Shown one piece after another: positions 34,009 through 64,000 of a stretch of 64,000 nt of DNA. Each line of letters opens with the position of its first letter. Within the stretch, counting starts at the first letter, position 1. Both the position numbers and the translations under genes were made by a program. The DNA is from Clavelina lepadiformis (Eukaryota > Chordata > Ascidiacea > Aplousobranchia > Clavelinidae). The notes under the pieces were generated by a model that did no database searches, was not told where the DNA came from, and saw only the letters and a list, made by a program, of their open reading frames with translations. The DNA lies in contig NC_135241.1 in NCBI RefSeq assembly GCF_947623445.1, positions 16,928,501 to 16,992,500 on the forward strand, written 5' to 3'.

Positions 34009-37000
34009 ATGGCTGTAGGGGTGAGTGACTTTTTAAGCATTTAATGCATTCTTATATTTGGTCTTCTCTGCATTCATGCGTCTGTGGTTGTAAAAAATCT
34101 TACTGTAGGTACTTAAACTTGCTGTAACAATGTGCTGTTGTTCCGCTCAAGCTTTAATTTTGCGTAGTGTTGTAGTTGCAAAGATTTGATAATTTTGCAA
34201 TATTAGCGTTGATGAATAAGCAGCAATGGCTCTGCCACTTAGGCTATTGTAGCCAACCCTTTTGGACAAAGTGAATTAGCGCAATTTTATTTCGCGCAGT
34301 CTTCAAGCGGCCTGTGTTGCATACTATCAATTGCGTTATTTTATCTATATACAGTGTACTTATTCAGTTTGTCTAATTCTAATCGAAGTCGATTGGACTT
34401 AAAATTTTCTGGATGGAACTTTTGCGATATATTCTGGAATTTTTTCTCGTTTCGTTTTTCAAATTACTTTGTGAGTTTGTGAGATACCGGTGTGTGTGTA
34501 GCCTGAATGTGTCAATGGCCGATTTATCTTACCAAAAGTCGAGGACACTTGTTTCCAATATACATCCATTTGAGTGTGGCAGAGTTCGTAACAAAGTAAT
34601 ATCTATGTATGAAATATATCACTGACTGAGTGCGATGTTTGTAGCAAATTTTAGCGCATAAGCCATGATGAAACCTTTGTGGACATATTCTCCATCAAAA
34701 TTTTCATCTGTATTTTGCGTTTTAATGAACATAGTGAAGATTTCTGCGTTTAGATTAAGATGTTTTAAAACAGCAGTCGTATAACTTTCAATACCAGAAG
34801 TTGTTTATAACTTTCGTGAACGTTGCTATAACACTGTTAATTTCTCAGTAAACTAGGATTTCTGAAGGTACTTCACTGTCAGAATATTGTGTATTAAATA
34901 GTTACGATACTTACTGTGGGGTTGCTGTTTTGTCAATTTTGTCAATGTATAGCTGTTTCAGTGTATTGGGAGTCGGTGACAAATATAAGTTGCCGAAGTC
35001 GTTTGTCAAGATTTAGCTATTGTCATGGAATAAGGGTATGCGTCTCCTTTGTATAAACAGATCAACACAAAAGAAATTAGTACTAACATCGAAAAAGTCG
35101 CGATCTTGTTTTGTAACATCCCTTTAAATTATTTGTGACATAATAAGAGCCATTGTTGCGTCTTGTAAATTCAGTTTGGTTTAGTTTAGGGTGATCGCGT
35201 TTATTGTGAGAAAAATGCTTTCTCACTAAAATGCCCCAAGCATGGGCTTACGTTTGGCGGTACTGTATTTTTAGATGATTGCCATTTGCAAATTACAGAA
35301 TTAAACTCAAACTATAACAGAAGTGTAAGAAAGAAATGATAGACTATGATCAAGAAGTGAAAACGTTTTGTTTTTCAAAGCAGACAGTTTTGGTTCATCT
35401 TTTTCACTGAACAATGCGCATGATAAGGGAAATGTGTGATGTTGTCAACACAATCTTGGCTGCTATCCGTACATGTTGAAATTCAAATCAATTTTTCAAT
35501 GTCGTAAAAGAAAACTATAACCTTCGTAATCTGTTTTCAGATTGAAAAATCAAAATCTTTTCCGTCTGATAACCCGGTGTCAGTTAAAAAAGTGCAAGAT
35601 AGGACAATGTCGAGGTCAGCCGGACCTCGAGGGAGGAAGAAAAATAGTGCTCCACCTCCCCGAGTAGGACCCGGAAGTACTTTTGAATCCGTACCCAGCA
35701 ATGTTGCTCGTCACATGCATCGCTATAGCAACAAAATTGTCATAGACATGGATACAATCAATTTGAAGGTGTGCAAAATAGAATAGACTTACGTTAACTT
35801 TTAAACTTTGTAAAATAGTCATTTTATACTAAGTTTTTTTTAAGTAAGTGGAGGTATTACTGGATCTCTTCCTTTGTAAAGTATAGATATGACCATATAA
35901 TACCGATGTTGGCTTAATGTAGACTAACGGAACTGTTTGGATTGTAACTCTTACTATTGTGATTTTTATTGAAAGGCTTTTCCTGAAGAAGTGTACGCTA
36001 ACGAAGAAGTGGCCATGATGACGCAGATCATCCGAGCTCAAAATAATAAATTGAAAAGATTGCCGAAAAAGATGTCAGATTTGCAAGGCTTGCATGAAGT
36101 AGATGTGCAAAACAACGTAATTGGTTGGTGAATGCAGCCAGCAATTACATGCGTTGTAAACCTACAGTATTCGGCTCGACAGACATCTTATGCATTTTTA
36201 ATTTGATCTATTTTCCTGATTTTATTTTATTCCTAGTTACATTTCATTTTCCTGCTGTTTTTTAAAATGTTTCGTATTCTTTTTGTAGGTGCAATTCCGG
36301 CTTCCGTTTCAAGGTTGAAAAAGCTCTCTTCTCTCAACGTGTCGGACAATAAGCTGAAAACTTTACCGAGAACAATTCATAAAGCTACAGGGCTTGAAAC
36401 ATGCGTCGTATCAAATAACAAAATCAAGAAACTTCCAAAAAATATTGGCCAAAGCCCCAATATGACCATGCTCAATGTATCAGATAATGCTATAAGAACC
36501 CTTCCGAAATCAATTTACCGACTTCCGAAGTCTCTAGACGTTTCCGGAAATTTACTGGAAAGTCTTCCGGCTATCGTGATCACTAAAAAAGGCAAGGGCA
36601 ACATTTCTCAGTTAAATCTATCAAACAATCGCCTGTTGAGTCTACCTGAGGATATTGACCGGCTGCAACGACTAACTTACATTAACGTCGCCCATAACAA
36701 CCTTAACCACTTGCCAACAGGTGTGTAACAAGTGCTTTAAGGTTTAAATTGCGCTTTACCGATTGTTGATTTGAAAAATTTATTGCATTAATATCGCTAT
36801 AATTTGTTGCCTCTAACTAGCCCTGGGTGCCTTAAAATACTTATCTTTTCTGGATGCTTCCCATAATCGCTTGGATACTATCCCAGGGACAATATATGGC
36901 CTAGGGTTTAGTCTGGGAACAGCGAACTTTTCCAGCAACAGGTTAGTTATAATATGCTTTAATTTTTAACATGATATCGAAATGTATCCTCTCAAAAATC

Positions 37001-40000
37001 TTTAAGAGGATCATGCGTTGTTTTGAGCAAACAAGAAAAACATCTTAAACTCACACTTCAAGCTACGTGATTAGGATTCATTTTATTCCGGAGGGTATTG
37101 GCGCTCTCAAGCGCTTAAAGACCTTGCTGCTGGATAACAACCAAATTGAGAAGTTGCCACCGGATTTAAATGAATTACTTTCACTCGAGCAGCTAGATAT
37201 TTCCAACAACAAAATTGCTGGAATACCTGAAATAATAGGTAAGTCGGTAAATTATTACTTAGTAAAGTCTGCTCAACCCTATTGGATACTTAACCTATAA
37301 CTTTTGTTATGTTGTGCAGGATTGCTTCATCTTGAAAAACTGGATGCATCACATAACAAAATAAAATCCTTGCCCGCGGAACTGCAGACATTAAGGTGCC
37401 TCTATCGAGTTTTGTTTTTGCATATACTGATCAATCATACACTTATCATCTAATAGGTGGGTGAGTGTTCTAAATCTCTCGCACAACCAGCTGACTGAAC
37501 TTCCTCCGTCCATTGGCCACATGAAGTCGTTAAAGGAGCTCAACCTTCAAAACAACAAGCTTGAATTACTTCCAACCTCTCTTGGGGAACAACAGCTCTT
37601 ACGCACCCTAAATGTATCCGACAACGAACTCACTGACTTGCCAAGCGATTTGCGCAAATGGCGGACTGTTGAAGTTCTTTTTCTTGCCAGCAATCAGCTC
37701 TCACAGATGCCGGCAAGCTTCAAGTACCTTGAAATGTTGCACACTTTTGATATTAGCAACAACAACTTCGTCACCTTCGCCTTACCACACGGGGCGAGCA
37801 AAGCACTAAAAAATCTAAAACTTGCTGGAAATCCGTGGCGATTGCCACCACCGGGAGGTGAAGATAACCGGAGTCTTATTACTCGAATTCACAGGTATTT
37901 AAATTATTGTGTCCAAAAAAGTCCAATAATTGCAAATGTTCCACTTTCACTTTACCAAGCATTTATTTTGCAAAAGATCTTGAAAATATTGTCTTTTGTT
38001 AGAGAATTGAATCTGATAATGACGTCACTGGATTTGTCCGGAGTCGAACTGGAAGAACTTCCTTTGCATATTTGCATCTGCAGGAACTTGAAGGAACTGA
38101 GAGTCGCTAAAAATGATATTAAAGGTTAATTGATGCATATGCACATAAAAAATTTCAATCTGGGCTTTATTCATGTCGTTTTCACAACTAAATTTCATAA
38201 ACAACTGTTTCTGTAGAGTTGCCATGCAATATAGGAAGACTGCGAGGACTCCACATCTTGGACGTTTCAAACAATGAAATTGTAGCAATTCCCGAACAGA
38301 TAGGATCTCTCGGACAATTACGGGAATTACACGCTCAAAATAACTGCATTGAAGTGTTCACGCCAAATCTTGTCAAATTGAGGTAAACATTCGGGGATGA
38401 AATTTTTAATATTTCTTCTCCTCCCTTCTTGGATCAGGTGTTTGATGAGGATTTTATGTTTGTTCACTTTTCCGCAGATCTTTACAGATACTAAATTTTT
38501 CTGGGAATAAAGTCAAAAAATTGCCAGAAAATTTTGGAGAATTGAAGAAGCTGATAACGATGGATTTATCTGGTACGTTATTTACTCTCCACTCTTGTAT
38601 AAATTTGTAAGTATGCTTGATATGTTGGCATTAAAACTTTCTTTTCAGTCTTCCATTTCACACATGCTTTTATGTAGACAACCGCTTGCCCGAACTTCCA
38701 AACGACCGAATAGATGTTTTGGCCTCGTTAATATCCTTGAATATTTCCTTCAATAGGGTCAAAGTTATTCCATCAGACATGCCATATTTGTACCGAATGC
38801 AGGTAGCGCATGTGCATTAACATATGCTCTGAAACATTGCAAAACACTTAGTCAACCTATGGTATACTCAACTGATTACTGTATCATTAGATTTTGAATC
38901 TATCGAGAAACGATATCTCTGGACTTCCTAATGATATTTGGCGAATGAAATCGCTCACAAAGCTCGATCTTTCAGATAATCTCTTGGAAAGCTTACCGGA
39001 ATCAATTGGAAAACTACCATCTTTAAAAGTAAGCGATAACAATTTGCTGATCGCTATCAATCACATTAAATTGATGGTGTTATTATTGCTATTGCTGATT
39101 TTACCTTATCCAATAAGCGTTTAGCAAACAAACAAAACTTCCATTTTTCTGTCACAGGAGTTAAATGTTTCTGACAACAAAGTACGAATTTGGCCAAAGT
39201 CGATGATTTCGTTAAGGCAGAAGCTGGATGTGAAAGACGATCATCAAAACGAAAAGAAAGTCCGAGAACCATACGAGGATGAGGAAGTAAAGGAACTCCA
39301 TCCGGAACCAGAGGAAGGTAATTTCGGAGGTGGTATTTCATTCTGTTAAGAGATTTCATGTTATGATAATATTCATGTGTAAACTACTTGGCATCCCACG
39401 ACATAAAAACGACTTTTGCATTGGTCATGGAAAATTTTATGTTTTCATGTCCAACATTTCCCCCTGCCATAGCTGTTTGAGTTTCAAAATAAAATATGCA
39501 CAGATTGTGAGATAGTCATTTACTAATCAATTATAATCAATATTATACGTATATTTCCTACTAAGACAAATTTATAGTTTAACGTTTCAGCAATAGCCTA
39601 TGGGCCTTATTATATTTTCACTCTGCTATTGTTTAACACTGCATAGGAATTTACTAATTTCAACCGTATATTTTTCATGTAGACAAGAAACAGAAAGAGA
39701 AAAAAGGGAAGTCGAGTCCAAAGCTAGGCAGAGGTAAGAAGAGTGTTTACGATCTGTGTAGTAATTTTCATCAGTCATGGAAAATTTCATCGTTAATAAA
39801 CTATAAGTTATTATGTTATTGTGAACGTAATTTCACCTTTTAATTGATCTTCATTTTATATGTATCAGCTGCACGACCGAAAACCGCAACCGCTGTTGGT
39901 GAAAAGCGAAAGCAGAAACAAGCTATTAAGCAAACTGGTCTTCAGTCGCAAGGTGGCGTAGGCAAACCGGAAGCAAACACCGTTGCAAAAAACGCAAAGC

Positions 40001-41015: not shown

Positions 41016-43467
41016 ATGGAGACTACGGCAGCTACGATTTACGTCGCAGAAAATACGATGACAGCTTTTAGTTTCACCCCAAAACCGCCCTATGAGGAGA
41101 TCTATTGGATTGCGTCTGAGGTTATCATAAGTGCTGTTTTGCTTGTTGCCACATATCTTTTGATCTCCGTCAGCGCTTACACAACTCAAGTTGAAAAGAA
41201 GAAGACAACCAAAATTCTATTGTATCTAGTAATCGCGACCCTGGTCACTGGAATCGGACGATTTGTCGCAAATCAAGTTGTAGCTTTTTTAGGCTGGCAA
41301 AAAGATACATACTGTGTCGTTTCGACGTCTATCAGCTTTTTTCTGTATTCGGTTAGTTCTTGTCCAATATATGTGTTCTTATGGCTTCGTCAGAACACTT
41401 TCTACTCCGACTCAAGATTGAGGCAACTTGTGAACAAAAAGGTTCATTATATCAGCAAGCTTTCTCTTTTTCTAATCATCGCAACTGCCGGATCAGTCAC
41501 GATTCTCTTTCAAATTCCAAGCATTACGGGCTGGGATTACAGGGCTACCGATACCGGATGCCGTGACACAAACGACCAGCGTGATTTGGAGATTCTACCG
41601 TTATTGGTGCTTGTCGTTGTCCTATTTTCACAGCTGCTGTTGTTGTCACTGCTCGTTTATCCTTTAGTGCTCACGAAACGAAGACAAGAGCGTATGTTGG
41701 CGTGCAAGCAACCGACAATTCCAAGAATTGAAAACAAATCAATGCGCCGCTTGGCTACACTTGGAAATTTTCGACACCGGCAACAGAGCGGGGAAATGCC
41801 TGATTTCTCAACAACACCACCAGCCTCTCCTACTCCGCTTCAAGCCTCCAACTCTCAGCACACTGATGGTGAAACGTTTGCAGACTTCACAGGTTAGTAA
41901 TGGTTGATGATTATCTAGGCCTCATCTTGTGTATATAGTATACCATCTCTTTTATACGCTTCAAAATGCAAAAAATGAGTGAAATTTTGAGATTTTTATT
42001 CTTGTTTTTGTCCTTCATTTGCATCTTTACCTTGTGTGTTTAGCGAGTGATATGGAAATAGATGTGTATACCTCCCATTCTGAAAGTGAATGTGAAACAA
42101 AACAACCGACTAAGACCAAACGAAGAAGCCTCATCACAAAAGTTATTTACTCCAGGTAAAATGAAACACCGGCAGTATCATCGATTTTTAACTTGACAGA
42201 AGTGTTTACTTATTAGTTATTACCTTTCTTACTGTTTTTTTTTTGTGTGAGTATAGGAAAGCACAAAACATAGCGACAGCCTCTACGAAAACAACCGGGA
42301 AGAAATTTACTACAACCCATCGCCGTAACATTTTCACTTCATCTACTCAACATATGCTTTCGAAAAAAAATGGATCGTTGAAGAAAAATGAAAAGGAAAA
42401 GGAATTTGCCAGGTTAGATAAGTGTTAGAACTGGTTATATACATGGAGCCAATATAGAACAGCTTAACATTGGTTGTACTGAAAAAGTTTAAAGCAACGG
42501 TCACTCTGATTTTTAGAGAAAAGCAGCTGGCCAACCTGATCAAGAAAGTCACAATCTTGGCTTGCGTTTGCGTTTTCTCAGATATCTGCGCAACAGCATT
42601 ACAGTTGCTGCTGGTGGTACCAGAACTTGTTTACCTTGCTCTGTACGACGTCAGTTTGTTTGTCAATATTATTTGCGTGCTGATCTCATTTAAGGAATGG
42701 CCCAAAATGCTTTCCCCTCCGTGTGCAATCAAGTAAGACATTAAACATATCATTTTTGTCTATTGTTCCGTTTTGTACTTGAACAGGATCACATACACTG
42801 TGAATTAAACGTATTACACATCTGAGTGTAAAACGGTAGGCTAATTATAAATCACTACATGCGTAGTAGGTAGTAATCGTAATGAAACCGGCCTCGAAAC
42901 TTACTCCTTCTTACGAAATTACCCAATTTTGAAATAATGTAGGATGTAATATTGTTCATGATGCGCACATTACAGTGACACAAGTTTAATAAAGCTTGTG
43001 GTAACTATCCACGATAAGCTGCAAAGTAAAGTGTTGTCGCAAGGTATAACGTGATATGTACGATCCACATTCTAGCATGCTTAATAACTTCCGCATTCGG
43101 GGCAATATATGGTTATACTATTAATCACTACACGAAGTGTGTTGCAATACGTTATTCAATATTCATCTAAAAATTATTGCAAGATGCGTGTTTTAAATTA
43201 GATATATGAGAGCCTGATACAAGAGTGCTGCCTACAACTTTTGAACATCTCTCTGTTTTTAGATTTTCAAGAAAGCTCAGAAGCAGGTCACTAAATTCTC
43301 AAGCCAGTAGTGTCGAAACAAACTTCACAGTCGTGCCTTTCAACCGTAGCAAAATGCACAAGCGCGGACCGTCTGAAAGTTCATTGATGACAGTGACACG
43401 TCCAAACACACCAGACTCTTTGCCATCTCGAACTGCTACTCCCGATCACATGACTTCACGGATGTAA
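41016..43467 (+). CDS. Orphan seven-transmembrane receptor-like protein 1 (521 aa)
   Basis: Exons 41016-41892, 42044-42155, 42257-42412, 42517-42732 and 43263-43467 join in phase. Hydrophobic helices lie at about residues 30-54, 66-91, 99-124, 146-168, 191-219, 391-414 and 417-440, a seven-span layout with a very long, basic, Ser/Thr-rich third inner loop (about 220-390). Cys100 at the top of helix 3 (KDTYC) and Cys182 in outer loop 2 (DTGCRDTND) could form the disulfide usual in GPCRs. Helix 3 ends FLWLRQN where rhodopsin-class receptors have DRY. The C-terminal tail has RPNTPDSLPSRTATPD. There is no signal peptide. Ligand and family are unknown to me. A paralogue follows at 45.6 kb in the same orientation with the same intron phases. 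Confidence 0.9.
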
Positions 43468-45596
43468 AATCCGATGATAAGCTTCTAAACTTGCTTTATA
43501 CCTAACGTCAATTTATTTATACTAATTGTTAAGTGTGAAAACCGTTCTATAGCGTTGCATAGGCTTGTTATGATATTGTTTTTGTTCATCTAAACCACAA
43601 CATTTATTGTAGCCTACAGCCGGTCTTGTGTCCGACTTTCTGTATTTGGCATTGTTATTTGTAGGTAGTTTTAACCTTTTCGTGAAAGCCGTTTGGAGCA
43701 AACTTTTATGAGTCAAGTTTTGAACAAAAAAATTTAAATTCATTTTAATTTTTTTGGAAATAATTCGTATTTCATTGCTGTTCTTATTGTCGTATTTATT
43801 TGTTTAACAATCGTTACAGGTTTTATCAATGCTTTTGCACTTATAAAATAGCTTTCTGCGTTTTATTGATGAGTGAGTCATGATTTTTTTCAGATTACTT
43901 CAATACGTCTTTGCTAAAAAGTAACCATTTGCCTGTATAGTCTCAGTGTGATAGAATATGTATCAAAATATTTTTTTTATAGAATTTTTAAACTTAACTT
44001 TTTCTAAGCTTTTTACTGACTTTGAAAATTGCTCAAGAACTGTGAAATTTATTACTCAAGTTAAACTCTTAACTTTACATTATATCTAATCGAGTATTAG
44101 TCTTCAACCAACAGAATAGAAACATATGTCTGCACTGCTAGAATTAATTGGATTTTAAGTTTATTAATGTATTTCATCAGGCAAGCTGAGTTACCTCATT
44201 GTCATTAAATATTATTTGAATCTGAGGTTGTGTTTGCTAGGCACATACGCAATATAAAAATTACAATTTCACCTGCATATTCTGTTGTTTGAGATGTATG
44301 ATTGGGTTTGGCTTCCGATCCCGACCCAACAACGTACTTACAGCAAAATAGGCTTTGTTAAATAGACGGGATATTCAGGGTTCGGAGCAAGTGTACAGTA
44401 ATTATAATTATGTGTTGATCGTAGTGATAATTAATTAATGATCATACATACTCATAACATGTGTTTCAAATACCGTTGATTTTTGCATGTTATCAGATTA
44501 TACATCCTTCGTGAGCAGATACAGAATACAACACGCAAAACCTTTTTTATAATATCGGTTGGATTAAAATTTCTATTCTAAAGGTAATAGAATAAGGTTA
44601 GGGTAAAATTAATACGTCATAACGTTTAAGCTAGACTAAGTTAACAAGTAATCCAAACAAGCACTCTAAATGTTATTAGGCTATACAATTTTTGCGGGTC
44701 GAATGGTCGCTGCAATCAAACAGTATAGCAAAGGTAAAAATCCTGTCCTACACTACCTGTAGTCGTGTGCGTATTCCACAGAGTATTTCAATGTATAGCA
44801 TAGATAAAGCAAATATTTTTTTAATTATAAACTTTCAAGGTGATGTAATGTATTACTCATGCTGATTGCGCATTAGTAGCAGACTCATGCAGGGCACATG
44901 ATGGTCTGAATATCCTACACATGACGTCTTTGAAAAGGTTGATTATGCTGTAATTGGGAAAGCTACAGAATTTCTTGTTCTATGTAGGCGAGGTGGCGCA
45001 AGATCAGCTAACTCTATTAATAGAATTCCCATGCCAAGAAATCTTCTGAAGTCCCGAATATACTACCAGCAATATGATTGCAACTATTGTACGGTATATA
45101 TTGCGCTGTCGTGTCGTGGTTATAAGTCCTAACGATAGCCCATTTAGACTACCAGTTTTTGCAGACAGATTGCAAATGCAAAGCGCGAAAGTTACAAGCT
45201 TGCAGTTCATTTGTAATCATCTACATGCCACTTTTGATATTTATATCTACTGTACAGTATTTAGCATTAGAATTAGACAAGAAAATTAGAATTTGTTTAT
45301 AAATCGTATTTCATCGAAGGTGACTTAGTGACTTACACAACGTCCTCTTCGCGACCAGGATATATATAAATCCACATGTGATAAGGTGTTACGAGGTTCC
45401 GTTTTATGTTTGATTGCACCACAATGTCGCTGTTATGACATGTGAGAATTTTCTTCTCTTGTGACATGCAGTGACCATACCCGGATTCATTAGCTCGTTG
45501 AAAGCTTGTATTAACCACCACTATATTACTTCAAATAGATTTCCAGCTAGGTAGTTGGTTTGTCTTATACTTGGTGATATAAAAGTTAACTTGATT
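43468..45596 (+). promoter_or_regulatory. Spacer between the two receptor genes; TATA box of gene 2
   Basis: No exon is supported in this 2.1 kb. The left part is the 3' UTR of receptor 1. A TATATATAAA stretch at 45361-45370 lies about 230 bases ahead of the receptor 2 ATG. Confidence 0.45.
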
Positions 45597-48500
45597 ATGT
45601 TGAATGCAACTGTGCCTCCGCCAGAGCCTTACAACGAGCAATATTGGATTATTTCCGAAGTGTTCATTCTTTGCACTGGACTCTTGGACCTTTATTATCT
45701 GGTCTGCTTAATGCCATATGCCTGCAGTCTTAAACAGAAAGGTGAACATAAAAGACTCGTACTATTGTCCGTTCTAAGTACCGTAATTATTATGGCCCGT
45801 TTAATTACGGATCAAATAGTGGCATTTCTCGGTTGGCGAGCTGACATTTACTGCGTTGGGTCAGTGTCGGCTAGCTTTGTGCTTTACGCAGCAAGCATTG
45901 GACCCGTGTATCTTTTCTTGTGGCTCAGGCAAAACGCATTCTTCTCTAAGCCTCAACTGCAGCATCTGGCCTGTAATACGCTGAAATATACAAGTTGGGC
46001 CACATTGTTCATAGTAGTAGCAAGTGCAACAGTGGTGTGCATTATTTATCCAATTCCAAGCGTAACTGGTTGGTCGTACCAGGCAACAGCACAAGGATGT
46101 AGGGACGTGAATGATACAGAAGATTTGGAAGCAATGCCACTCATCATAAACGGCATTGCTTTTGCTGGACAAATTTCGCTTTTACTGCTCTTGGTCTATC
46201 CCTTGATTTCGTCAAAGAAAAGGCAAAAACGGTTTGCATCACCCAATAATACAGAGCAGGAGAGCGGTCCGCATTCTTCAACTGCCCCCGCAAAACAGGA
46301 ACCTTCCTTACGTCGGAAAGCAATCCTTGGAAGTTATCACAAATGTCAACCAAGCGACACGCAAGTAGTACAGCAGGATATTGAACTGTCAGCTCTTCCG
46401 GTTCATGACCGCTCATCTGGAATATACAATGTTGAACATAGCGATGACGAATTAGACGTCTTCTCGGAGAACGGAACCGGTAATTTTTGATAACAATCTG
46501 TACTTGCACATTTTTAAGAAATATGTATACGTTTGTTATATTAAGCAGATGAAGATGGGAATCTAACGGATGACTTTGCGTCACAATCTGACCTAGAGAG
46601 CGAAGTCGATCGGGCTTCGCCAGGTATTCCGAGGAGATTGAGCCTTTGGAAGAAATCAATCGTTTACATAAGGTGTTTACTTTGACACTTTTGGCAAAAG
46701 CCACTGGAAATGACATAAAGATTTATGTTCTACCAGTTTGCAGAGTTGTGGGCTATGCTATATTGCGCAAGCTATACACTGTGTATCGATTTCAAAGTTC
46801 AAACCTGCAAATTACTCAGTTGTGGTGTAAAGTATAAGCTAAGGATAACTGCAAATTATAACCTGTCCTGTCGGTAGGAAATGTTAATGCCACTGATCTA
46901 ATGAATATCAGCATAAGCCCAAGTATTAATTTACAAGAAATGCAATTTATCCGGCTCAAGATATCTTCCGCACAATGTCTAGCAACCATATAACCCGACG
47001 TCAGCAATTAAAAGAACGAATCAGGTGCTTTGTGGTAGCACTCGTTTGACGAATCAAATGAGGCGAATCAACAAATCATGCATAGTGTAACATCGTTCTG
47101 TCGCAATCATTTTCGGTTTGGGAGATGGTTATAAATCGTCACTGTTTCACCTTATATACAAATCCACGTATTTCTGTTTATCATACGCGTGCTGTAAAAT
47201 TTGCTTAATTGGCTTAAATTGAGCTTTTATTTCCTATAAGATTGATCCATAAATGTAACGAATGGAAACAGATGCAACTGTTAATATCGAGCTTCAAAAA
47301 TCAAATAAGCTTATTCCTTGTTCAAACGTATTGTTAAAACGTCGGTTTTAACAATCAACAAACATTCCTGAAAATAGTACTGACATCATGAACGCGAAAG
47401 TATTAATATATTTTAATAATTGTTTTTACTATATTTATTTATGTGACAGAAAAGCTGGAGTATCTAAAAATCACTACAAGAAAAGCCCCAAAAAGCGTGA
47501 TACCGGTGGCCGCAACAGAAGCGAATCCGCAGGATCGGCTAAAAGCATGATTTTTCGTAAACGTGAAGCAAGAACTGGCCCGCATCGACCCCGCAGTAAA
47601 TCAGAGATACGAAGGTTTATTTATTACACTGGACAACAATTTACAACTTATTTTTTATTCCTCGCTCATTTCAAGTTTACCTAGACTAATTTTGCAATGC
47701 TGAATCCAAATCTGGTCTTAGATTTTTTCTAACACGTCACGTTTTTGAGATATGATATATGCTCACGACAACCCATAACTGTGATTTTGGCTAATTTTGG
47801 CTGAGCGGAACAAAACATTACATGTAATCAACCCAGTAATTTCTATTGAAAATAACAGCATTATCATACTGCACAATTTAACACAACCCAGGATAATTAA
47901 ATCAGACAAAAATAACATTATATTCCCTCAAAAGTGCTTTATACACTTGCTCTTTCGAGTATGTTCAGTGTCAGTTTCACGCTGAAGAAACCAGCAGTAG
48001 TCCCCCATCATGTTTGGGTTAAATCGACCTCTATACCGCGATTCCATCACAGAGATGTCTTGGTGAAATCTTTCCCCATGCTCGTCACTCACATCACCCA
48101 GGTTTGGCGGGAAAAATTCCAAGTGTGAATGAAGAAAATGCAGTTTAACCGACATTCTGCAGCCCATTTCGCGGTATGATTCCAGCAAATTGTCCACTAG
48201 TTCCGAGTAATTTTCTGCCCTGTACTTCCCAAGAAAATTTTGTACAATCTGTACAAATGCATTCCAGGCTTTTAATTCAATTGAATTAAGCTTGGATGGA
48301 AATACTGGGTCACGGATCAAATCACGTATTTGGGGGCCAACAAATATTCCAGCTCTCAGTTTAGCATCACTTGGTATTGCACCAAATTTTTCTTTTATAT
48401 GCAGGAATCCATCTCCATTGAAATCCATTGCCTTCACAAATTGTTTGATCAGGCCCAGTTTAATGTGAAGTGGTGGCAAGTACACTTTGCTCGGATCAAT

Positions 48501-50319
48501 TAGGGGTTGGCACTTAACATTATATCTTCCAACAATGTAGTCCGTTCTCATTGGCCATTCAGTTGTGTCATAGTGGTTTGCATCGTCTCGACTGTCCCAC
48601 AAACAGAGAAAGCACATATGCTTGGTGTAACCCAACTGCAATCCGAGCAAAAGTGACACAACTTTAAGGTCTCCACATATGTCCCCCCCCTACCCCTACC
48701 CCCCCCCTCCCCTCTATAGTCATGGCCAAGAACATTCAAGAATGCATTAATTGTGAAAAGATAGAACATTGCATTTACAAAATAATGTCAATATTAATCT
48801 TACATAACATGCATTGTGACATAATATGACCAAAAATTCGCTGGGAAAGAAAATTGCACAATACCTTGTACTGTAGAACCTTATAATATAGTGCCAATCA
48901 ATGCAAAATCCGAATTTCGTGAATTTTCATATCTTGAAAACCTGACGTGATAGACCAATTCTGATTTCAGATTTGGAATCAGCGTCCCAAAGTTAGTCTA
49001 GGCAGTTTATTTTCATTTGAGGAATAATTTTGCTGTTGTCCAGTGTTATTAATAAAGAGTCTTGCTAAACCCAATTTTGCTTTTACTTTACATAGCCTAT
49101 ATGCTGTTTTACCGCAGATAGGCTACATTGTTTTTAATTGTGCTTTATAACATAATGTTTTAAATCTATAGCATCAGCAGAGGATAGTCGATTGAACAGT
49201 TTAACTTATTTATGTGCTTCCTTTTCAGGGAACGACAGCTAAATAAAGTTATATGGAAGGTTTTTATACTTGCAACAATATGTGTTGTATCTGACATGAT
49301 AGCAACGGCGATTCAACTTATTTTGGTGGTACCTGAACTGGCCTATCTTGCTTTGTATGACGTCAACCTATTGGTTAATGTGACGTGCATTATTATGTCG
49401 TTCAAAAATTGGGACAAGATTCTTACATATCCGTGGAAAAGGTCGGTCGGTATTCATCGCTAATATCCGTGAAACATTAACTAACCAAGCACTTGTTTAC
49501 GCCATTAAAGCGAAACCTTATTCCTCGAGAGAATCGAATTGAAATCACTAACACTGTTGCTACTAAGTATTAACAATTGTTCACATATTAGTATTATTGG
49601 TGCATTGAGCCTCAGAGTGCTGTGGAAATAGAGTATTAAAGTGCAGAGGTAGTCCGCAAAGTGTACTGCGGTGGCAGAGGCTGGTACGGTTGATTCATTT
49701 CACTTACAAGCTATTATGGCCATATATAGTCGGGGTTTGTTACCCATAACGCGTTTACTGATAACAATTCTGTATGACTAATACGGAGAGGTGTAGAAGT
49801 CATTTCGCATAAAAGACTTTTGAAAAGAAAACTTCACTACAAAAAAGTAAAAATGGTAATAATTGCCTTTTTTGATGACTAACTTGTTTTGATGCTATTA
49901 TTTCTTATTACTGCCCTTACAGGATTTTTAAATCACGGATATTGTACGTTTATAATAATAATAATCTGTGCTGTGAGCTTCTGTCACTCTCATTCTAAAA
50001 AACAACAAGGTTTAACTTCATTTTCTATGTGATTTTGTATTTAATTTTCAGATATTTTCGTATCACAAAGCCTCGATCTTCTTCGAACATATCGCAAACC
50101 AGCACAATCTCGGGAAGGGTTACCACGACAACAATTGTCAGATCCGATGTAAAATGTATTGGTCGAAATCGAGTACAATCAGATGCAAGTTCTCTTCGGT
50201 CTATGACAAGTCAGAAGACTGGTTCTTCAACACTTTCTCGCCCAAACACTCCTGACCGTTCAAGCACATTGCCAAGGACATTGCGCCATAACAACAACGT
50301 TAAAGAATCGTTTGTGTAA
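45597..50319 (+). CDS. Orphan seven-transmembrane receptor-like protein 2 (550 aa), paralogue of receptor 1
   Basis: Exons 45597-46479, 46549-46672, 47450-47614, 49229-49441 and 50052-50319. Junction phases match receptor 1 at all four introns. The start is the ATG of MLNATVPPPEPY, aligned with the paralogue. Shared with receptor 1: the (P)Y-E-x-YW-I-SE start of helix 1, QxVAFLGW before helix 3, Cys86 and Cys168, FLWLRQN, the GWxYxATxxGCRDxND outer loop, a long inner loop 3, VVPEL-YLALYDV between helices 6 and 7, and SRPNTPD in the tail. It has a possible N-glycosylation site at Asn3 (NAT). It ends ESFV-COOH, which fits a class I PDZ ligand (S/T-x-V), whereas receptor 1 ends TSRM. Intron 3 holds an antisense transposon-gene relic. 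AATAAA at 50604-50609. Confidence 0.9.
47928..48680 (-). pseudogene. C-terminal part of an unclassified transposon-type gene, antisense in receptor 2 intron 3
   Basis: An uninterrupted minus-strand frame of about 250 codons reads ICGDLKVVSLLLGLQLGYT, then CFLCLWDSRDDANHY, YLPPLHIKLGLIKQFVKAMD, LHFLHSHLEFFPPNLGDVSD and EHGERFHQDI, ending in a stop. I recognise this as the C-terminal half of a family repeated in many invertebrate genomes and thought to be mobile-element encoded. A His/Asp/Glu-rich core could be catalytic, but that is inference. The 5' part is missing: recognisable sequence stops at a G-tract near 48.7 kb. No start codon context or promoter is seen, so it is called a truncated copy, though the open frame suggests it is recent or constrained. 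Confidence 0.7.
48683..48713 (-). repeat. G-rich tract, potential G-quadruplex
   Basis: On the minus strand four or more runs of 4-9 G are separated by one or two bases. It sits exactly where the transposon-gene relic breaks off. Confidence 0.75.
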
Positions 50320-62637: not shown

Positions 62638-64000
62638 TTAACACTAGAAGGACGGCAATTTTCGTATACCTAGAAGGACGGAGTGCGTCAATTGACGCAT
62701 AAGGTCAAAACGGCGCAAATCTAACGTTTTTTGTTGAGAAAACTGTGCTGTTGCTCCGAAAAAACTACTTCTATCGCATGTCCGCTTTGTGCATTTTAAT
62801 TAACAAAAGCAATCGCATTGAAAATACAAGCCTCAGTTTGAAACAACGCTTGAAACCAGTGAACACTTATAAGTCCATACTCAAAAATACTTTTCCTAAG
62901 CACACGATTTGCACTTTCTGGTAGCACATCGCCCACATACCGCTTTCTTACAGTCTTGGCACCTTTCGGTGGTACGATTTCTGCACTTTGAGGTAGTGCA
63001 GGTAACGCGTTGTTTGACAACTGGATTGGTAATCGTGGTACTGGGGCCGCAACCGCCTTCTGCTGGACGTTTGCGAGTAATTGCTTCCACACTTCCGGTA
63101 AGCTCTTCTGCTATCTTTTGTATATATTCTCTGCGGCTGATCTTGCTCTGGCAGACGCGTTTGTAGATAATCCAGCTGTTGATAAGAGCCATATCAACTA
63201 CATTGTAAAATACATGCACCGGCCAGCGTCTGCTTGCTGCTTTGACCGAGTACAACCGTGCCATTTGATCAAAAACGTCGACTCCACTTTTGTCTCATTA
63301 TAGTAGAGTATAGAGTCAGGCTTCTTTTTCGGATTTTCGTTGCTTGAAACGTGGACGTCCAGATGTAGGCTGCTCAAAATTGCCACGTTTTTTGCTGCTT
63401 TGCACTGGTATGATGTGAGTGTAATTGCTGTTTGGCCGTCGTGCCTAAACACTTCTGTTTCACGCAACTCCTTTTTCTTCTTGCACTCTTCCGGGACTTC
63501 TCTCCTGTTCTGGCGCATTGTCTCTACGAGGCTGCACTTCTTTTCCGCAAGTCGCAACGCCAGGTCAAGTGAGGTGAAAAAATTATCGCAAGTGACGTTG
63601 TAACCTCCTTGAAAAAGCGGCGCCATGAGTTTCAGTACAACGTCGGTGGGCACACTCACGTGGGGGCTCCTTGCGTCATCTTTTCCAACGTAAGGAAAAC
63701 CGTTGAATAAATATTTGTTTTCAACGTCAACTGCAAGCCAGAAGTTTAGACCAAACTTGTCTGGTTTATTGGCCATATATTGGATGAACTTGCAGCGTGC
63801 CTTACACGGCAATAGTTGCTCATCCACAGTTATCTTCCACTGTGGAATAAATGCTTTTTGGCAGTTTGATATAAAACTGTTCCAAAGTTGTGAAGCGAGT
63901 GCAAATTTATCATGCAATAGATTCCTACGCCTTTCCGTCTTCAGATCGAAGCGAAGGAATCGTATGAGCTCCAGAAACCTGTCTCTTGTCATGGTTTGGG
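62638..64000 (-). mobile_element. piggyBac-family DNA transposon, 3' end and part of body
   Basis: A TTAA target site (62638-62641) is followed by CACTAGAAGGACGG. The word CTAGAAGGACGG occurs at 62644-62655 and again at 62670-62681, then a 16-base palindrome TGCGTCAATTGACGCA at 62684-62699. TTAA duplication plus such terminal/subterminal repeats and a piggyBac transposase frame identify the family. The other end lies past the window. It is inserted just downstream of the last basigin-like exon, probably in an intron. Confidence 0.92.
62896..64000 (-). pseudogene. piggyBac transposase, frameshifted, N-terminus outside window
   Basis: The frame enters from the right edge (in-frame codons precede MTRDRFLELIRFLRFD) and runs through TVDEQLLPCKARC (first catalytic Asp) and YNVTCDNFFTSLDLAL (second Asp). 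At about 63281-63287 one base is missing relative to the family, so the frame leaves the transposase just at the third catalytic Asp region and ends early. The correct continuation is intact in another frame (MARLYSVKAASRRWPVHVFY) to a stop at 62896-62898. It ends in a Cys-rich RING-like C-terminus (CTTSKCRNRTTERCQDCKK, then CGRCATRKCKSC), normal for piggyBac. Apart from the single shift no damage is seen, so it is a recent copy or carries a sequencing error. Confidence 0.9.

What the first reader, a model, noticed from the sequence alone, without database searches (positions are those of the whole stretch)
41016..50319. Tandem pair of orphan seven-transmembrane receptors of an unnamed family
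Two adjacent same-strand genes encode proteins with seven hydrophobic segments, the GPCR-type Cys pair (helix 3 top and outer loop 2), FLWLRQN in place of DRY, a very long basic inner loop 3, and a shared RPNTPD tail motif. All four intron phases match (1,2,2,2), so this is a local duplication. I cannot place them in a named receptor class, and they are the best candidates here for an undescribed receptor system.
Basis: partly seen in the sequence, partly recalled or inferred. Interest (0 to 1): 0.75.

Follow-up and report, generated by a model that had tools for sequence, protein, structure and literature searches.

The report
Sea-squirt orphan seven-helix receptor pair
Two neighbouring sea-squirt genes encode receptor-like membrane proteins from a family of about a hundred genes that matches no catalogued receptor class, and such families are candidates for how sea squirts, which seem to lack the usual smell-receptor genes, sense chemicals.

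Summary
Both genes splice into five exons (521 and 550 aa), GT-AG, phases 1,2,2,2, with seven hydrophobic segments, a Cys pair, FLWLRQN and RPNTPD. The genome fits Clavelina lepadiformis by its nine chromosome lengths. The pair is not isolated: five searches give 103 family loci after merging, 57 in six arrays, many intronless. Pfam gave no convincing match for 64 sequences, and profile tests do not link the family to class A GPCRs (37 of 150 decoys score as well). GPCR-like features are still strong: N-terminal sequons, basic inner loops, a Cys pair in 55 of 63, and Cys-to-Arg spacing of exactly 25 in 53 of 55, as in DRY receptors of this genome. The pair and one other locus form a branch. 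Its outer loops are conserved and its inner loops diverged, the reverse of the arrays, which suggests one shared ligand. [quoted passage not shown] it is probably the same family, but I could not test this. Structure comparison failed (weak model; fold search never ran).

The parts
41016..41892 (+). Gene 1 exon 1: N-terminus, TM1-TM5, start of inner loop 3; Cys pair C100/C182; FLWLRQN after TM3
   Evidence: splice model; alignments
42044..42155 (+). Gene 1 exon 2 (inner loop 3)
42257..42412 (+). Gene 1 exon 3 (inner loop 3, basic)
42517..42732 (+). Gene 1 exon 4: TM6, outer loop 3 (VPELVYLA), TM7
43263..43467 (+). Gene 1 exon 5: tail with RPNTPD, stop
45597..46479 (+). Gene 2 exon 1: N-terminus, TM1-TM5, start of inner loop 3
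46549..46672 (+). Gene 2 exon 2 (inner loop 3)
47450..47614 (+). Gene 2 exon 3 (inner loop 3, basic)
49229..49441 (+). Gene 2 exon 4: TM6, outer loop 3, TM7
50052..50319 (+). Gene 2 exon 5: tail with RPNTPD, ends ESFV, stop

Best explanation
Genes 1 and 2 are two old paralogues in a large, lineage-expanded family of GPCR-type seven-helix receptors of the sea squirt Clavelina lepadiformis. Shown: the gene models, the family and its arrays, the signature residues, the topology bias, and the branch made by this pair with one other locus. Inferred: the N-terminus faces out; a C100-C182 disulfide ties outer loop 2 to TM3 as a lid over a ligand pocket; R125 at the inner end of TM3 and the basic inner loops engage a G protein; the very long, Ser/Thr-rich inner loop 3 carries regulation. 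The family as a whole most likely serves chemical sensing. This pair, whose outer loops are conserved while its inner loops have diverged, most likely recognises one conserved ligand, so it is not a fast-evolving odour-type receptor.
For: Splice models and shared phases. 103 merged loci, 57 of 103 in six arrays. Residues kept in 63 aligned ORFs: W123 60, R125 60, C182 60, Y130 58, C100 56, both Cys 55; Cys-to-Arg spacing 25 in 53 of 55, the same spacing as from Cys to the DRY Arg in 10 of 20 class A loci of this genome. N-terminal sequons in 52 of 66, 4.75 per 100 aa against at most 0.86 elsewhere; K+R per 100 aa 29/24/21 in inner loops 1-3 against 7/10/7 in outer loops 1-3. dN/dS 0.31-0.73 in 13 of 13 array pairs. 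Pair 100/93 and pair plus L009 100/97, bootstrap/SH-aLRT. Gene 1 against gene 2: 70, 68, 80% identity in outer loops 1-3, 18, 35, 29% in inner loops 1-3; in the three arrays measured, inner loops 1 and 2 together are at least as conserved as the outer loops. The model of TM1-5 has a two-strand hairpin at outer loop 2.
Against: No significant profile link to any GPCR class: Pfam, PDB sequences, class A loci of this genome both ways, best E 0.04, hhalign no better than helix-permuted decoys (37 of 150). The DRY acid, W6.48, P7.50 and the TM2 Asp are absent from the family consensus (consensus; class A numbering recalled). No expression, ligand or G-protein data. Outer-loop conservation rests on few sequences: with L009 added the contrast is weaker (outer loops 40-50%, inner loops 1-2 30-36%, inner loop 3 12-27%), outer loop 3 is only five residues as delimited, and TM7 (67%) is about as conserved as the outer loops. 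Some sequons also fall in inner loop 3 (12 of 66) and the tail (18 of 66). Model confidence is low (pLDDT 54, pTM 0.47).
Confidence: 0.6

Rival explanations
1. They are far-diverged class A (rhodopsin) GPCRs whose profile signal has decayed, so the family is a derived rhodopsin branch and not a separate class.
For: Exact C-x24-R spacing (53 of 55) as in DRY receptors of the same genome; outer loop 2 Cys; two TM7 Asn four residues apart, as N7.45/N7.49 (numbering recalled; N432 in 51 of 63); an untrimmed hhalign run is colinear over 288 columns at E 0.006, against 0.07 for the reversed profile; one of 56 members hits 7tm_1 at E 0.014; one blastp pair at E 0.001 (L080 with L043); hairpin at outer loop 2 in the weak model.
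Against: hhalign probability 2.8-3.8%; 37 of 150 permuted decoys as good, a test run on trimmed alignments whose real hit spans only 80 columns; HMM searches both ways non-significant; none of the listed PF00001 places overlaps a family locus, by eye (182 matches, not all listed, 147 of 476 candidates scored).
Confidence: 0.45
2. The pair are ordinary environmental chemoreceptors like the arrays, each with its own ligand.
For: They belong to the same family as the arrays and sit in tandem; in Ciona a 7TM protein said to belong to a tunicate-specific family is enriched at the exposed tips of larval papilla cells (PMC7397655, passages).
Against: Only three loci in this branch; the branch keeps introns; outer loops 68-80% identical between the two genes while inner loops are 18-35%.
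Confidence: 0.3
3. They are not receptors but a seven-helix transporter, channel or enzyme-type family.
For: No receptor family matched; one relative (L089) hits Na_H_antiport_1 at E 6e-4, 19.3 bits against a cut-off of 23.5, over 63 residues.
Against: Cys pair, C-to-R spacing, N-terminal sequons and basic inner loops fit GPCRs; expansion in arrays with dN/dS 0.31-0.73 is of the kind seen in chemoreceptors (the comparison is recalled); the antiporter hit was not seen in the other seven proteins of that call, nor at E<=0.1 among the families listed for the 56 members.
Confidence: 0.1
4. The five-exon models are wrong: exon 1 and exon 4 are separate genes, or one gene is a pseudogene.
For: No RNA evidence here; gene 2 intron 3 holds a repeat insertion.
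Against: All introns GT-AG with matching phases and open frames; intronless relatives carry both halves in one ORF.
Confidence: 0.05

Closest known systems
Tunicate-specific orphan 7TM family of Ciona KH.C3.516 (EvoDevo 2020, PMC7397655; passages read)
   Same: Seven-helix proteins said to have no BLAST hits outside tunicates, tandem relatives, large expansion, suggested as chemosensory receptors.
   Different: The pair described here has five exons, a very long inner loop 3 and a conserved outer face; whether Ciona members share these was not seen.
Class A (rhodopsin-type) GPCRs, Pfam 7tm_1
   Same: Seven helices, N-terminus out by sequons and charge, Cys at the top of TM3 and in outer loop 2, Arg 25 residues after the first Cys, possible TM7 Asn pair.
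   Different: LRQ in place of DRY; no significant profile match; several class A landmarks absent.
TAS2R bitter receptors (recalled, not fetched)
   Same: A similar FL-x-LK-type motif at the inner end of TM3 (recalled).
   Different: TAS2R is not among the families listed at E<=0.1 for 56 members; the conserved Cys pair is not a TAS2R feature (recalled).
Vertebrate odorant receptors (Pfam 7tm_4)
   Same: Large, often intronless, tandemly arrayed seven-helix family (odorant receptors: recalled).
   Different: 7tm_4 finds no match in this genome, but no positive control rang. A review says studies failed to find OR orthologues in tunicates (PMC7776563, its section 9 read).

Membership tests
Class A GPCR (7tm_1) | Profile match of the kind Pfam accepts | tested here: not met
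   64 different sequences scanned (56, 8); 7tm_1 appears in 1, at E 0.014 (bits not shown there)
Class A GPCR (7tm_1) | Profile-profile similarity beyond generic helix composition | tested here: not met
   37 of 150 helix-permuted decoys reach the real score
Class A GPCR (7tm_1) | Cys at TM3 top and in outer loop 2, Arg 25 residues after the first | tested here: met
   Both Cys in 55 of 63; spacing 25 in 53 of 55; the disulfide itself not tested
Class A GPCR (7tm_1) | DRY/ERY motif | tested here: not met
   LRQ at the equivalent place; W123 and R125 each in 60 of 63
GPCR in the broad sense | Seven helices, N-terminus outside | tested here: met
   Hydropathy, N-terminal sequons in 52 of 66 and charge bias; from sequence only
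GPCR in the broad sense | Fold like that of solved receptors | tested here: inconclusive
   Low-confidence model of TM1-5 only; no fold search ran
GPCR in the broad sense | Ligand-dependent G-protein coupling | not testable with these tools
   Needs cell assays
Insect OR/GR type receptors | Inverted topology, N-terminus inside (recalled) | tested here: not met
   N-terminal sequons and basic inner loops point to N-out
Tunicate orphan 7TM family of KH.C3.516 | Sequence homology to KH.C3.516 | not testable with these tools
   No Ciona sequence could be fetched; description only

The most novel reading that the evidence does not exclude
Sea squirts use a seven-helix receptor class of their own, outside the known GPCR classes, as their main chemical sense; it radiated from, or alongside, a small intron-bearing branch (this pair and one relative) that keeps a conserved outer face and reads one endogenous or species-wide ligand.
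Probability: 0.25. Interest if true: 0.85.

Novelty: new variant of a known kind. Interest (0 to 1): 0.55.

Why it matters
A 2020 review (PMC7776563, its section 9 read) states that studies failed to find orthologues of vertebrate odorant receptors in tunicates, that V1R and V2R orthologues are missing, that TAAR claims are disputed, and that alternatives are probable. A family of about a hundred loci with signature residues, array positions and a separable conserved branch gives concrete genes to test. It also gives a way to split the family: intronless arrays as candidate odour-type receptors, and the pair in this window as candidate receptors for one conserved ligand.

Tried and rejected
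Pfam and PDB sequence searches with single proteins and with the family gave nothing usable. In one search, 23 families were each hit by one of 56 members at E<=0.1, the best (DUF4731) at E 0.003, better than 7tm_1. Profile tests against class A receptors of the same genome were negative; I first took the colinear hhalign run as support and gave that up after the decoy test, which was run on trimmed alignments. A tunicate marker test with Pfam GH6 gave no hit and no control rang, so it says nothing; the species call rests on chromosome lengths. The COX1 search did not complete. An RPNTPD-like tail was not found on the gene's strand of the L009 locus. The TM1-5 model has pLDDT 54 and I use it only to note its elements. 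dN/dS of gene 1 against gene 2 could not be estimated.

Counting notes: of 63 sequences in the first alignment, seven (fragments or near-copies) were left out of A1 (56 sequences). The 66-sequence set drops four short ORFs and adds seven of the eight loci; L091 was left out as a fragment. The 103 loci come from all rows and, the rows that I judged new plus a few repeats; loci of one strand within 1500 bases were merged. One place new (C9:4558859) and one new (C2:2391038) are not counted. Some loci have stops or match weakly, so 103 is a count of places, not of working genes; the tool calls its own counts lower bounds. In one search the script printed 11 of 20; I count 10 of 20 because in L080 the Cys and the DRY motif are not in register.

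Full report
The two genes are real as read. At E<=10, gene 1 matches nothing in Pfam better than E 0.06 and gene 2 nothing at all; gene 1 matches no chain in the PDB sequence set.

The window lies on contig C2 of a 209.06-Mb genome of 95 contigs. Its nine large contigs (lengths) agree to within about 0.01 Mb with the nine chromosome lengths given for Clavelina lepadiformis kaClaLepa1.1 (PMC10884593, passages read); the published total is slightly larger (210.1 Mb in 102 scaffolds). The species call rests on lengths, not on a sequence comparison.

Gene 1 exon 1 finds 71 places at E<=1e-3, including itself and gene 2. Four further seeds and merging of neighbouring matches give 103 loci, 57 of them in six arrays on chromosomes 4 (two), 5, 6, 8 and 9. 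A sixth full-length seed added one place by my comparison. Many relatives are single open frames of some 270-440 residues. The TM6-7 exon searched alone returns 24 places; by my reading 22 lie in or beside loci found with the TM1-5 part, 12 of them in one long open frame with it. That is the best evidence here that exons 1 and 4 belong together.

In 63 aligned ORFs the best-kept residues are W123 (60), R125 (60), C182 (60), Y130 (58), P216 (58) and C100 (56). Cys-to-Arg spacing is 25 in 53 of 55. The same spacing, from the TM3 Cys to the DRY Arg, is seen in 10 of 20 class A loci fetched from this genome; the other ten, some truncated or divergent, do not show it in register. Sequons sit in the N-terminus of 52 of 66 members, and inner loops carry two to four times the K+R of outer loops. 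This is the topology of GPCRs and the opposite of insect OR/GR receptors (the latter recalled).

Tests of descent from class A were negative. Of 56 members scanned against Pfam, one hits 7tm_1 at E 0.014, and unrelated families are hit better, down to E 0.003. Eight more gave nothing above a cut-off; the best was Na_H_antiport_1 at E 6e-4 for one of them. Searches between family and class A profiles were non-significant both ways, though one blastp pair reached E 0.001 in the same call. On trimmed alignments 37 of 150 helix-permuted decoys matched the real profile score. None of the listed PF00001 places in this genome overlaps a family locus, checked by eye; 182 matches were reported, not all were listed, and 147 of 476 candidates were scored. 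I therefore do not file the family as class A, although it may be a decayed branch of it.

The pair is a distinct branch. With L009 (contig C2, 6.35 Mb) it forms a clade at 100/97. L009 also has its TM6-7 part in a separate exon. Between gene 1 and gene 2, outer loops 1-3 are 70, 68 and 80% identical and inner loops 1-3 are 18, 35 and 29%; TM7 is 67%. In the three arrays measured the order is reversed or level: for example chromosome 5, outer loops 87, 68, 32 and inner loops 1-2 72, 78; chromosome 4, outer loops 40, 41, 28 and inner loops 1-2 50, 58. With L009 added the contrast weakens (outer loops 40-50%, inner loops 1-2 30-36%, inner loop 3 12-27%); 10 of 25 outer-loop-2 positions are invariant in all three against 13 of 171 in inner loop 3. 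Synonymous divergence of the pair is saturated, so the duplication is old; 13 of 13 array pairs have dN/dS 0.31-0.73. I infer that the pair keeps one ligand-facing surface, while the arrays diversify. This is an inference from three sequences.

A structure model of TM1-5 made from the two window exons has pLDDT 54 and pTM 0.47. It shows long helices and a two-strand hairpin at outer loop 2, as many GPCRs have (recalled), but it is too weak to lean on, and no fold search could be run.

Literature. Poncelet and Shimeld 2020 (PMC7776563; passages, the section on ascidians in full) report that OR orthologues were not found in tunicates, that V1R and V2R are missing and that alternatives are probable. 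Kamesh et al. 2008 (PMC2396169; passages) report no olfactory receptors and no homologues of insect or nematode chemosensory receptors in Ciona. [quoted passage not shown] A 2024 paper names it as a marker (PMC10962819, passages); passages of PMC12176390 did not bear on the family. The term KH.C3.516 occurs in two papers of the library. In the listings of the other searches I recognised no further paper on this family; preprints and most subscription journals are not in that library.

Verdict: real, interesting, partly anticipated. The family is probably the one noted in Ciona. What this work adds is the map of the arrays, the signature residues and the separable conserved branch in this window.

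Noticed in passing
window 47931-48689 (-): A 253-aa open frame inside gene 2 intron 3 is an interspersed repeat: 151 matches reported in the genome (150 of 1527 candidates scored), six rows 100% identical with the same bit score, this copy included. No Pfam match at E<=0.001. A young insertion within the receptor gene.
   Followed up: partly
window 62899-63998 (-): Transposase pieces: DDE_Tnp_1_7 at E 2e-42 in one frame, and a weak match (E 9e-4, below cut-off) to its end in an overlapping frame.
   Followed up: no
window 37431-38126 (+): Leucine-rich-repeat open frame upstream of the receptor pair (LRR_4 at E 2e-20); a second LRR-like frame at 36237-36725 was seen by eye only.
   Followed up: no
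L081-L088 (contigs C1, C2, C3, C5, C7, C8): Open frames from PF00001 hits that mostly lack a DRY motif at the usual spacing from a Cys; four that I read look alike. Possibly another expanded, divergent receptor group in this genome.
   Followed up: no
G000 C8:2080336-2131395: Array of eleven family loci with near-identical copies, including two 338-aa frames with 100% identity about 8.5 kb apart; suggests recent duplication or conversion.
   Followed up: no
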